Part shown: in pieces, positions 42,001-48,000 of the stretch
How positions within the stretch are numbered: the first letter of the stretch is position 1
Layout: every line of letters starts with the position of its first letter
NCBI GenBank assembly: GCA_960531495.1
Contig: OY482848.1
Location: 23,468,879-23,532,878, forward strand
DNA: 64,000 nucleotides
Origin: Zeus faber
Lineage: Eukaryota > Chordata > Actinopteri > Zeiformes > Zeidae
Direction: 5' to 3'
Translations under genes and position numbers: made by a program
The notes under the pieces: model-generated
Told to the model about the DNA's origin: nothing
Database searches by the model: none
What the model saw: only the letters and a program-made list of their open reading frames with translations

Positions 42001-45000
42001 CAAATACAGGGTGAAGGCTTCCACAAATTGTGCAATTTCGCCTGTGTTTGGTTGGGATAGTACTATCTGAGACAAATGTTGTGGACAAATTCTTAGAATT
42101 TTAACTTAAAGTGGACCTATTATACCCCTTTTTGCACAAGGTAATATGGGTAGTTATATACAGTATATATATTCCATATGAGGTACCCAAAACATGTTTT
42201 TGAATTTTTTTGCTGAAAATACCACTCAGATAGTGCATTAGAGCCACTCTAACATACCTCTAAATTCATTGTGTTACTGACGCTCTGTATAAATGGGAGG
42301 AGCCACCATCCTGAGGCCACGAGTTATGTGAGCCAATGGGGTTTGAGCATGGAGTTCTATTTATTCTGTAACTTTCACTGATTTCACCTTATTGGTCCAC
42401 CAAAATCTGTATTTGAACAACTTTGAGGCAAGAAATACACAATCCAGTTCCTAAAAACACTCATATTAGATCTACAAGGCCTCATTTAAAAGTTAGTTCC
42501 CCGACTTGCCGTGCCATGCTCCAAGCATCTGGAGGATACAAACACTGCACCGGGACTCTCGTACGCAGGGAATTTTTATTTGATGTAAATGTTGTAAAAT
42601 AAAATAAATACACCAACAATAAAAACACTATTTTTATGTTTTTGTTTGGAGAAACCCACAGTGGATCGGATGGAGCAGATGACCAGATAAAGAAATGTGT
42701 GACGAGCTGAGTCAGCTTCTGCAGAGAATAGAAAAAACCTTTGCAAACAGAGCGTTCAGAGCAGTCAAAAGCCTGAGGGCTTTGCTCAATGCGATTACTT
42801 TGTCATTAGTTTATCTCATTATTTGAATTATTCGACACTTTGGCCACGTATAATATGAACATCCAATATTGTAACATTATATCTATGACAGAAAGTAAGG
42901 AAAAAACAAATCGATCCCCTTTAAGCCCCCTTATGTTGAGTTGACTAATTTGATGATGTCATAAGGATGTGCTGGAGAAACTCCGTCCTCTACACCCGTT
43001 GCCTGGGGTGATTCTTGAGTGGAGGCGGATCACCAACGCTATGACCAAGGTGGTTTTCCCGCTGCAGAGAGAGAAACGGCATCACACTACCCTGGCCATG
43101 GACAGGATCCATCCCATTGCCCAGACACACACGGCAACAGGTACATTTACGCACACACAATTACACAAACACGCACATAGTCACTGGGATTCTAATTTGG
43201 TCACATAGTGTACTGAATGTAGAAGAAAGGAGGTATTAATGAATTGAATAATATATTGTCTTTTTTATTGGGTGCATTATTTTTTTTATTATTGTTATTA
43301 TCATTTTCTTGCCCAGCAAATGGTCACTCTGCACCTTATATATTTTTTTCACAGGTAGAGTGAGCTTCACAGAGCCAAACATTCAGAATGTCCCCAAAGA
43401 CTTTGAGATTGACATGCCAACGGTGGTGGGGGACAGTCCACCTTCGCAAGATGGCCGGCATTTTGCCACTAAGCCGGGGTAAGCCAACATTTCCCCACAG
43501 GGAACCATTGCATTGTTCCGTCCCAAAGTCCCTTGAAAATGTTTAAACCCAGGACACAAATTGATTGATTGGACATTGACTTTCCTTCACCTATCACAGC
43601 TCTATTTCACACCTAGACCTCCCCCATTTTCGATATATTTTTTTCTTCTAACTTAAGTTAATTCCATTCGACATAACTATGTTTCTTAAGCATACTTTGT
43701 CTAGAACTGCACTAACAAGCTTTGCTGTATAAGATGTTTGTGTGTGAGTGATGTGTATTGATATTGTAGCTCACGCTGGAACCTCACCAGGCGCATTTTA
43801 GGGGGGGCTGGGATTTAGGATAATATTGAAACACGTGTTTTCCTTTAATTGGGACAGATTTGGGTGTATTCTATCTTAATTTATTTTGATGATAATGCAA
43901 TACCTCTGAAAGATGATGAACACGTTTAAAATGGTCACCCATTGGAGCTGTAACTAATGCAGTAATGAGGCTGTTGTTTCCTTCCAGCAGGAGGCGCTCC
44001 ATGATGCCCCCACTTCCAGTGGGCGGTCCAGAAAAAGGCCCGGCCTTCTCTGTTAGCATGCGACATGCTTTTGTACCCTTTTCAGGTTCCTCATTTTGTT
44101 ATTTACACATATTACTAACAGGATCTAGACTTAGCGTGAATTTATTTTAAATATGTGGTGTCATTTATAAAATTTGTGTGTATGTGAGAACTTTCAGAGC
44201 ATGTTTATGTGAAACAGTTTTATGTTTCTTTGCTGTAGGTGGGATGATATTGGCAGCGGATTATTCCCAGTTGGAGTTGAGAGTGCTGGCTCACCTGTCC
44301 AAGGATCGGCGCCTCCTCCAGGTAAGATATTCACTCAGACACACAATACAAATAGTATTCATAACATGCAGGTAATTTATTACAGCTGAGCAAAGCCATA
44401 GAAATCATGATTGTAGTTGATCCGGTTTTATATTTATTGAATATGTAGACAGCGAGAAGGAGCAGGAAACACTAGTCATAAGCATCCAAGACTCTGCTGA
44501 CTCTAAATCACAGTCACAAGTTCTGTTCAAGGGGATGGTGAATGGTAACTTTCCACTAGTTCAAGGACATCCACATGTGGCAACAAGTTCAAGTTTAAGT
44601 TCAAGTTCACATATATGCAGTGAAATGTCATGACACCCGGTGATTACGCACAATAAGCTCTATAAGCTCTAAAAATACTAAAATGTGCGTACAAACAAGG
44701 ACAAACCAGGACGTCTGGTCACGTAGGCTACATCAACTGTAAATATATGACACTTTGTTTAGGAAACAAAAACCTTGATAACAACAAGTGGAAATCTATC
44801 TAAATATCGAAAACATGGATATTTTGTTTTGGTGTTAGACATAATGAAAACAGTGTAGTGACTATGATTGGTTCAATACTCAACAATCAATCAACTAACA
44901 AACTAGTAAATCACTCAATATCAATTCTCACCTTGCATAGCTCATCATAATCACGATCAAGAATTTCTGTTCGGGTCCAGTGAGGTTCCCCGCCGAGCCT

Positions 45001-48000
45001 CATCACCATAACTGCAGCGGTTGCTTTGGTCACAATGGCTCCACAGATGGCTTTCAGACATGTGACCCAAAGGAGGATAATATTCAGGGAAACTACCACC
45101 AAAACGATGTATGCAACGAACAAAATCACCCTGCGAGGGAGAATCTGTTTGATCCAGGAGAAGGAGTTCTTGGTGTCGCCGGGGAGAACTTTATGACTAC
45201 GATGGAGGTGATCAGTAACGTCATTAACGCGAGCATTGTTGTAAGATATGAAGGTACAACACTCAACTCCGATTACTGCACAAACCCCACCTTCAGACGC
45301 CAGGATGTAGTCAAGGATAGCTTGGTCCTTGAAGGCGACGAGTCTTGTCGAGGCAGGTTCCTGATCCAGGAGAGACCTATCTCCAGCACCGGAGTTAACT
45401 AAGTCTTCAACAGCGTTTGATAGAGCTCTCATTTGGTTCAAGGATGACTGTACCCCATAATTTTGCCTGAGCATGCCAAATACTGTAGACCAAAAGGACT
45501 GGTTAGGGGTGTGTAAAGCACCAGGGCTGTCTGTATCCAGATTGGATCTAATGAGATTCTCCAAGTCTGGAGTTGAAGGTGCATGGGGTAGTACACGCAT
45601 TGCTGGAACCACATAGCCTAGCCCGCATATCCCACTCCACCCCACAGGGAGATAATCATAAGCTGTTGACCCACAAACCCAATATGTACCTTTTGCTGCT
45701 GGGACAGAACAATGGGCTGCGGCTGTAGCCAGTCTACTAAAAAAAGGATTATCGGTAGTGCTAGCACATTGCTCCGGAGGAGGAGCGGGGAATGTGCGAA
45801 TCAAATTTTCATACAATACGGGATGCGATGGAGAATACACTGCTCCACAGCTTGATTCGCCTAGAAAAGAACTGGTCCCATTTCCTTTGATACACCAGGG
45901 GAACTTCAGTGGGAGAACATTAAGTCTCAGAGACGCAGGAGCATCGCTACAACGGTGACAATGTTGATCAGCAGTGTGGCACGGCGTCAACCTCGTTTGG
46001 GGTGACATGGGACACAGCTCATGATAATAGGCCTCATTGGTACGCAATAAATGACAAGTGTCACAGTCGGAGGTTGGCACAGCCATCATAGGAATTCCTT
46101 CCTCTGAGCTGAGTGGAATGAAACCACATACATAACCGTTTGTAGTGTTGTTCAGAGGCTGGTGCTCGGCCACCAGTTCAGCCAGCCTGAGGTAGACGTT
46201 TATAGGTGGTCCGCGGTCACCCTCAAGGAGCTGGCCAGCAGCAATGGCTGGAGAGGGTGTCACTTGAACATTGCTCCTATTGAGTGTTGAAGTCGGGGCA
46301 GAGATTACCGGCATTTCACCCTGAATCGGCGTGCCGCCATTTAAGGCGCTCAGGAGCAGGAAGAGGAGAGTTCCCATGCTGCTCGTGATCATCATCGCCA
46401 TCCACGGAGTCTGGATCGGGGGAAGGGTCCAGGAGGGTTGACGGTGAGACTTCACAGCTGTGTGGACGGTCAGCAGGACCTGGTACGGACCGCTCCACCT
46501 GGCCGGTCTCTTCCTTGTAAAAAATGTATAGGTGTGTCAGCTGCCATCACAAAAGTGTTGATGTTCATTCCATATGGGGCCTAATTAAATGTTCATAGGT
46601 GCGCTAACTGGACTTATCATAGGCACACCTGAAACACCAAACGCTTCTTCTATTTCAGAAGACTATAATACGATGATACTTATTATATTCTTATTTCCTG
46701 TGTCAAGCTTCTAACTTCAGCTAAAGGAAGTACATCTGTTTTGGTTCAATGGCAGTTGGAACAAGACGGTTGTCTTGCCCTCACATGTCTAGAGAACTTT
46801 GATTAACTTCTTCCTTAGATAGTGCGAGGCGCCAAGTGAGGCGCTGACCTTGATGCTAAATATTTCAGTACCGCACTCACACACAGACAGTCTGGCGAAG
46901 TAAAAAGGGAGGGGGAGTCCGCACAGACCAAGACGAAAAAACAGACAGAGGCTTTACCCAAAAGTTTTGCAGAAACACATTATGATGTAATTTTCTTTCC
47001 ATTTTGGTGTTGGATTGGACAATATCTTCTGTTATATTTCTCTTTCCAACTCTTTGTGAGACTCTAACCCAACAGGCCCATCCAGGCAAATAAACCGTTA
47101 AAACATGTTTATAGTTTTATAGTCTCACATCGATATCGGTTATAATCACACATAACGACTTTTCCAAAAATGGATGGTGGACCTGCCTCCACTTTGTGCA
47201 GAGATGGGGAACAATAACATGAGGGGATTTTTTTACAAAAGGCTCCCTTACCTCTTTCAGATGCTGTGTTCACTCTGTCCAGCCTTGAAGCGTTCTGCAA
47301 ATACTCAGTCTTCAGTCAGGTTCAAAGCTGGTCAAATGGGATTATATTTCTTGGCTGGTACACAGGGAGAGGCTACAGCAGTAATGAGCCTGGCAGAGTC
47401 TGCCGGCTGTGTCTAGACGAGTCCAACCAAGGCTGCTCGGTGCGAGGGAGGGCAAACGGTAACTTCTCACTCCTTCAAGGACAACCGCCTGTGGCGTAGG
47501 GGGTTGGACGTGAGGCCTGAGTTTCAACGTAAGATACTCCAGACCCAGAACTTGCGCGCATTAAAATCCACTAGTAACGAAGCAGCCATTATTGTATTTC
47601 ATGCGTCAGGTGCTGAACGGCGGAGCGGATGTGTTCCGTTGCATCGCCGCGGAATGGAAGAACATCGACCCCGACGCCGTGGACGACGGCCTGAGACAAC
47701 AGGCCAAACAGGTCGAGCCTCAGAGTGACCCTACGCTTATTCTCATTCAAGTGGTTGCTTAAAAATCCTCCGCCGACCTCATCCTGATGTCATTTTGAGT
47801 GCAGATTTGCTACGGCATCATCTATGGGATGGGGTCCAAGTCTTTGGGGGAGCAAATGGGCGTCGATGAGAACGACGCAGCCTGCTACATCGAGAGCTTC
47901 AAGGCCAGATACACGGGTACGCTGCTGTCCCCGTTCATATCCGCCTTGTACACGCGTCTCTGCTTTCAGGCTGTATTTCACGCATTTTAACTGTCGTTTT

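What the first reader, a model, noticed from the sequence alone, without database searches (positions are those of the whole stretch)
44911..46401. Intact, isolated retroviral env frame antisense inside an intron of polq
A frame of nearly 500 codons with signal peptide, Cys-rich surface unit, CX6CC motif and membrane anchor has no stop or frameshift, while every other mobile element in the window is broken. No LTR, gag or reverse transcriptase lies beside it. A lone open env after the rest of the provirus has vanished suggests long purifying selection. I remember a report of percomORF, an env gene conserved for over 100 million years in spiny-rayed fishes as an isolated ORF in an intron of a conserved host gene. 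This locus fits that description, but I do not recall which intron was reported. If it is not percomORF, it is a candidate new co-opted env.
Basis: partly seen in the sequence, partly recalled or inferred. Interest (0 to 1): 0.9.

Follow-up and report, generated by a model that had tools for sequence, protein, structure and literature searches.

The report
Ancient captured viral envelope gene, fish
A fish carries inside a DNA-repair gene one open envelope gene from a long-dead retrovirus; the rest of the virus has crumbled, the gene seems kept by natural selection, and it has lost parts that such proteins use to fuse cells.

Summary
The observation mostly holds: a minus-strand frame (44911-46536, 541 codons; 496 from the ATG at 46401) encodes a gamma-type retroviral Env inside a 3.3-kb polq intron. 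But it is not isolated: two decayed LTR-like direct repeats (44410-44587, 47342-47512) and an integrase tail (46429-46518) flank it, and a broken sister element with the same order lies at another site. The LTR relics differ at 26-43% of compared sites, depending on the alignment; env has no stop, while the sister has 5 stops in 239 compared codons. At neutral decay of 0.15 per site 15 of 4000 simulated copies stayed open, so purifying selection is likely. No near-identical copy was found in the genome. By polq the host groups with cods, not percomorphs; the percomORF paper could not be read, so percomORF identity stays open. New here: no RXXR furin motif, and the SU CXXC lacks its first cysteine, the one that serves isomerisation. 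I infer a non-fusogenic Env kept as a receptor blocker, as HERV-T Env or Fv4. New member of a known kind, unless it is percomORF.

The parts
44911..46401 (-). env coding sequence, ATG to stop, 496 aa: signal peptide-like N-terminus, SU, TM, CX6CC, membrane helix, short tail with YDEL
46402..46536 (-). open frame continuing upstream of the ATG; residues 7-36 (46429-46518) match the C-terminal tail of MLV-type integrase: pol remnant
   Evidence: PDB 2m9u E 0.0048, the only match at E 10 or less; Pfam MLVIN_C E 0.00083, below curated cut-off; the motif recurs in the sister element
44410..44587 (-). decayed 3' LTR-like relic
   Evidence: direct repeat with 47342-47495: score 95 v maximum 83 of 300 simulated sequences and v maximum 46 of 54 other window stretches; 73% to L011 3474-3651
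47342..47512 (-). decayed 5' LTR-like relic
47212..47341 (-). probable LTR end and leader; shared with the sister element but not with the 3' copy
   Evidence: 47212-47512 v L011 3463-3770, 62%, E 5e-15; alignment
44433..44438 (-). AATAAA in the 3' LTR relic, candidate polyadenylation signal; the 5' copy reads AAGAAA
46411..46413 (-). splice-acceptor-like CAG after a pyrimidine tract, 9 nt before the env ATG
   Evidence: consensus only
47246..47251 (-). splice-donor-like GTAAGG in the leader relic
   Evidence: consensus only; not kept in the sister element
44322..47609 (+). polq intron that holds the relic
44609..44687 (+). interspersed repeat inserted between env stop and 3' LTR relic

Best explanation
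A gamma-type retrovirus of the Syncytin-2-like class (CXXC near the N-terminus of SU) integrated antisense into a short polq intron, very roughly 40-160 My ago. Its LTRs, leader and integrase tail decayed and gag-pol was lost, but env stayed open under purifying selection. Shown: the anatomy, the decayed flanks, the decayed sister copy, no near copy found in this genome. Inferred: the host keeps the protein; without a furin motif and without the isomerising cysteine it can hardly fuse membranes; it therefore most likely acts by binding the old viral receptor (or by mixing with incoming Env) and blocking infection, as Fv4 and HERV-T Env do. My odds: decayed provirus 0.93; env kept by selection 0.85; non-fusogenic 0.8; antiviral receptor blocker 0.45.
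For: LTR relics, leader and integrase tail. A sister element on another contig with the same order and no polq match around it. Env open here; in the sister 5 stops in 239 compared codons (4 in env, 1 in the integrase tail) and pieces in different frames. Window v sister dN/dS 0.52 (0.38-0.73), as expected if one branch is constrained and one is not. Where relatives agree and only one copy kept the residue: window 32, sister 8, one-sided sign test 9e-5. Neutral decay keeps the frame in 69 of 4000 copies at 0.10 per site, 15 at 0.15, 0 at 0.20, 2 at 0.25. No RXXR in the 496 aa, where P0001 has RSKR and P0002 KRARR. The CXXC place reads GYVC v CYVC in P0001 and CWVC in P0004. The first cysteine serves isomerisation (PMC11575397, passages). 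In published Syncytin-2 work the first cysteine was replaced to prevent isomerisation (PMC9967133, passages). Fv4 and HERV-T Env block infection without fusing, HERV-T Env through its furin site (PMC9967133 section 9).
Against: No expression data and no orthologue were available. dN/dS 0.52 also contains evolution in the virus before integration. The simulation counts stops only, assumes the frame was open at integration, and takes its clock from LTRs that are hard to align (K80 0.65 over 169 sites; about 0.32 by hand from the trimmed alignment); the three LTR branches are uneven (0.21, 0.44, 0.16). The left LTR relic did not match the sister's second LTR beyond chance (59 v null maximum 60, at another place), although the right one did (59 v 47). 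The sister also lacks the LQNR-type motif seen in P0002, so that change may be viral and says nothing about the host. MLV furin-site mutants lose about 100-fold of superinfection resistance (PMC9967133 passage), which weighs against a blocker. This protein was never shown to bind anything.
Confidence: 0.45

Rival explanations
1. It is percomORF: the same ancient env locus, here in a non-percomorph acanthomorph, with its proviral relics recognised.
For: An intact env in an intron of a conserved gene fits the published abstract as I recall it. Four papers, read in passages, give percomORF an age of about or over 100 My. A turbot Env (P0002) is 38% identical over 68% of the query.
Against: By polq the host is not a percomorph. 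LTR-like and integrase relics are present, whereas percomORF was reported (recalled) with no discernible proviral sequence nearby. The protein collection is rich in fish (118 of the 120 polq hits listed carry a fish name), yet the env searches found only one named percomorph protein. That search is lossy, however: only the candidates sharing most words were scored, and one search did not return P0002 although it was in the query alignment.
Confidence: 0.2
2. A syncytin-like fusogen kept for cell fusion.
For: Best solved relative is Syncytin-2; CX6CC and membrane anchor kept.
Against: No RXXR furin motif, no complete CXXC; cleavage and disulfide isomerisation are described as steps of gamma-type fusion.
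Confidence: 0.07
3. Kept for another host role that does not need fusion (shed or membrane protein, immune signalling).
For: [quoted passage not shown] The same losses would fit.
Against: No positive evidence for any such role.
Confidence: 0.25
4. Chance survival: a neutral frame that has not yet taken a stop.
For: At decay of 0.05 per site 455 of 4000 simulated copies stay open.
Against: Half the LTR distance is about 0.16 to 0.33 per site, three or more times that decay; sister copy broken; 32 v 8 retained residues.
Confidence: 0.06

Closest known systems
percomORF (Henzy et al. 2017; paper not held, features recalled or from citing papers)
   Same: Ancient intact retroviral env in an intron of a conserved gene of an acanthomorph fish
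   Different: Host outside percomorphs by polq; LTR-like relics and integrase tail still detectable; host gene and sequence of percomORF could not be compared
HERV-T Env of humans (PMC9967133 section 9)
   Same: Intact old env ORF without a working furin site
   Different: HERV-T Env was shown to bind its receptor and block virus; nothing is shown here; here the CXXC is also incomplete
Fv4 of mice (PMC9967133 section 9)
   Same: Env gene kept without fusion ability, in the model proposed here
   Different: Fv4 is closely related to present-day MLV, is processed normally, and its defect lies in the fusion peptide
Syncytin-2
   Same: Best match among solved structures; N-terminal CXXC class (PMC9967133 passage)
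   Different: Syncytin-2 keeps its CXXC and fuses cells (recalled); the match covers residues 265-509 of the 541 only

Membership tests
Gamma-type retroviral Env | CX6CC next to an ISD-like stretch in TM | tested here: met
   CAVIGVECC at 374-382, preceded by LDYILASEGGV
Gamma-type retroviral Env | CXXC in SU | tested here: not met
   The place reads GYVC; the bond-forming second Cys is kept. Two other C..C motifs (113, 148) exist but do not align with it. Descent from a gamma-type Env rests on the rest of the sequence
[quoted passage not shown]
   No RXXR in 496 aa
percomORF | Intact env ORF in an intron of a conserved gene | tested here: met
percomORF | Same intron and sequence relation as the published locus | not testable with these tools
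   paper not held; no other fish genome to search
percomORF | No discernible proviral sequence nearby (recalled) | tested here: not met
   LTR-like pair and integrase tail
percomORF | Conserved across species under purifying selection | tested here: inconclusive
   Only one genome; selection inferred from decay and the sister copy
Non-fusogenic Env restriction factor (Fv4, HERV-T kind) | Expressed, binds a viral receptor, blocks infection | not tested
   needs experiments
Provirus | Two LTRs with internal viral sequence between | tested here: met
   I did not find LTR ends, target-site duplication, primer site or polypurine tract by eye, and ran no dedicated search for them

The most novel reading that the evidence does not exclude
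An env captured independently of percomORF on the cod side of the acanthomorphs, kept for tens of millions of years as a natural decoy that is fusion-dead twice over (no cleavage, no isomerisation), with a decayed sister copy in the same genome as a built-in neutral control.
Probability: 0.35. Interest if true: 0.65.

Novelty: new member of a known kind. Interest (0 to 1): 0.5.

Why it matters
Very old captured env genes are few and most have no known role. This locus comes with its own LTR clock and a dead sister copy, so age and selection can be approached from one genome, and its two missing fusion parts make a clear prediction: binding without fusion. If it is percomORF after all, the LTR relics give that locus a datable provirus.

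Tried and rejected
Tried without result: viral contigs (12 stretches matched a pattern, none confirmed); own-genome search with the right LTR copy (not completed); AlphaFold model of env, mean pLDDT 35, not used; Pfam on 6 spacer pieces for gag or pol, nothing; a third protein search with an alignment (3 proteins, none new). Literature: five searches. One search (polq with env terms) found 0 papers; in the listings (19 of 20; 13 of 14) no title or abstract start concerns this locus. PMC11011659, PMC4977317 and PMC5962544, read in passages, say nothing on it.

Considered and rejected: LTR repeats as common interspersed repeats (searches found only this site and the sister site; but neither listed the window's own right copy, so more decayed copies would be missed); the sister as a segmental duplicate of polq (no polq exon match at E 1e-8 in its 10 kb); an env-only element made from spliced env RNA (homology runs on past the donor-like site; not supported, but both copies lack gag-pol and I cannot say why); co-location of turbot Env and turbot polq from similar contig lengths (25.98 v 25.79 Mb; I take them for two assemblies): a lead, not evidence.

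Dating: one search gives 65.6% over 163 columns; from its coordinates I count about 145 ungapped columns, 26% different (JC about 0.32, by hand); one search gives 73 of 169 (43%), K80 0.65. 40-160 My assumes recalled teleost rates of 2-4e-9 per site per year.

Full report
What is there. The minus strand has one open frame from 46536 to 44911, 541 codons stop to stop. From the ATG at 46401 it gives 496 aa with 19 Cys, five N-glycosylation motifs (two overlap), CX6CC at 374-382, a membrane helix about 424-445 and a tail with YDEL. The longest open frame in 200 simulated windows was 273 codons. Env identity rests on Syncytin-2 (E 2.6e-11) and more weakly on Pfam TLV_coat (E 0.0013, below cut-off). 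The collection of 5.8 billion proteins gave 4 relatives at E 1e-3 among 7995 scored candidates: P0001 46%, turbot P0002 38%, a loach P0003 29%, an alligator P0004 24%.

Where it is. The frame is antisense in polq, between the exon with DYSQLELR (44259) and the exon starting VLNGGADVF; the intron is 44322-47609 (splice sites read). The two longest frames of the window are polq exons. The window is part of an 803-Mb assembly. In a tree of 48 polq polymerase domains (the window and 47 chosen from the 120 listed hits), the window joins cods (support 94) and stands apart from berycoids plus percomorphs (support 100). This is one gene, so the placement is provisional.

It is not isolated. A direct repeat, 44428-44581 and 47342-47495, flanks env: E 2e-9, score 95 against a maximum of 83 in 300 simulated sequences and of 46 in 54 other stretches of the window. 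In the frame just upstream of the ATG lies RWSGPYQVLLTVHTAVK, like the tail of an MLV-type integrase (E 0.0048; E 0.00083, below Pfam's cut-off). The repeat found one other place in the genome. The 10 kb fetched there (L011) hold, in the same order, an LTR relic with leader (3463-3770), the integrase tail (4921-4953), env pieces (5017-5315, 7024-7405) and a second LTR relic (8032-8281; score 89 v maximum 69 of 200 simulated). The window's right relic also matches that second LTR (59 v 47 of 100); the left relic does not (59 v 60, at another place). No polq exon match lies around it at E 1e-8, so it is a separate integration. Past the LTR, the window's right copy and the sister stay alike while the left copy does not, as expected of leader sequence behind a 5' LTR. 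No gag or other pol was recognised in 6 spacer pieces of the two elements. LTR ends, target-site duplication, primer site and polypurine tract were not recognised by eye; no dedicated search was run.

Selection. The sister has 5 stops in 239 compared codons, 4 in env and 1 in the integrase tail, and pieces in different frames. Window against sister: dN 0.367, dS 0.709, ratio 0.52, bootstrap 0.38-0.73, over 234 codons after leaving out the 5 stops. At 144 sites where at least two relatives share a residue, both copies kept it at 53, neither at 51, window alone at 32, sister alone at 8; some of these relatives are distant, and two counted sites lie at the start of the protein. The LTR distance is 26-43% of compared sites, depending on the alignment, with uneven branches. 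Neutral copies without a stop: 455 of 4000 at 0.05 substitutions per site, 69 at 0.10, 15 at 0.15, 0 at 0.20, 2 at 0.25. The frame is therefore hard to explain without selection, though orthologues were not available and part of the dN/dS signal predates integration.

What it may do. Two parts of the fusion machine are missing: no RXXR anywhere, and GYVC where P0001 has CYVC and P0004 CWVC (P0002 and P0003 do not reach this site). PMC11575397 (passages) says that the second CXXC cysteine makes the bond to TM and the first is reserved for isomerisation; the first is the one absent here. PMC9967133 (section 9; passages) describes Fv4 and HERV-T Env as blockers without fusion, HERV-T Env by its furin site, and a Syncytin-2 construct whose first CXXC cysteine was replaced to prevent isomerisation. 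It also reports that MLV furin-site mutants lose about 100-fold of superinfection resistance, which speaks against a blocker. A further change, at the LQNR-type motif, is shared in part by the sister and may be viral. I infer a membrane-held, uncleaved Env that can bind but not fuse; blocking of infection is the likeliest use and remains untested. AATAAA is kept in the 3' relic and reads AAGAAA in the 5' relic, and an acceptor-like CAG lies 9 nt before the ATG: compatible with a transcript from relic to relic, by consensus only.

percomORF. The paper could not be read. The six papers that hold the word were read in passages only and give there neither host gene nor sequence. The recalled hallmark 'no discernible proviral sequence nearby' is not met here, and the host is no percomorph by polq. 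Identity is open; I do not file it as percomORF.

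Noticed in passing
G000: 14 of the 80 scored env matches sit in frames of exactly 1088 aa without stops: probably a young ERV family elsewhere in this genome.
   Followed up: no
P0005: A polq protein labelled Lepidogalaxias salamandroides nests inside Gadiformes (support 100), against its taxonomy: a label or contamination question.
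   Followed up: partly
44609-44687; 20564-20643; 27369-27448; L011 1918-1997 and 9198-9264: An interspersed repeat, 77-93% alike, sits between the env stop and the 3' LTR relic and recurs in the window and near the sister element.
   Followed up: no
22194-22569 and L011 4099-4496: A 67% match: a repeat of the window also lies within the sister element's spacer.
   Followed up: no
window 46537-47212 and L011 3770-4921: Neither element shows gag or other pol between leader and integrase tail; a shared defective parent or two separate losses cannot be told apart.
   Followed up: partly
11379-11918 +: Weak Pfam match to an SBNO domain (E 0.0061, below cut-off): a possible exon of a neighbouring gene.
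   Followed up: no
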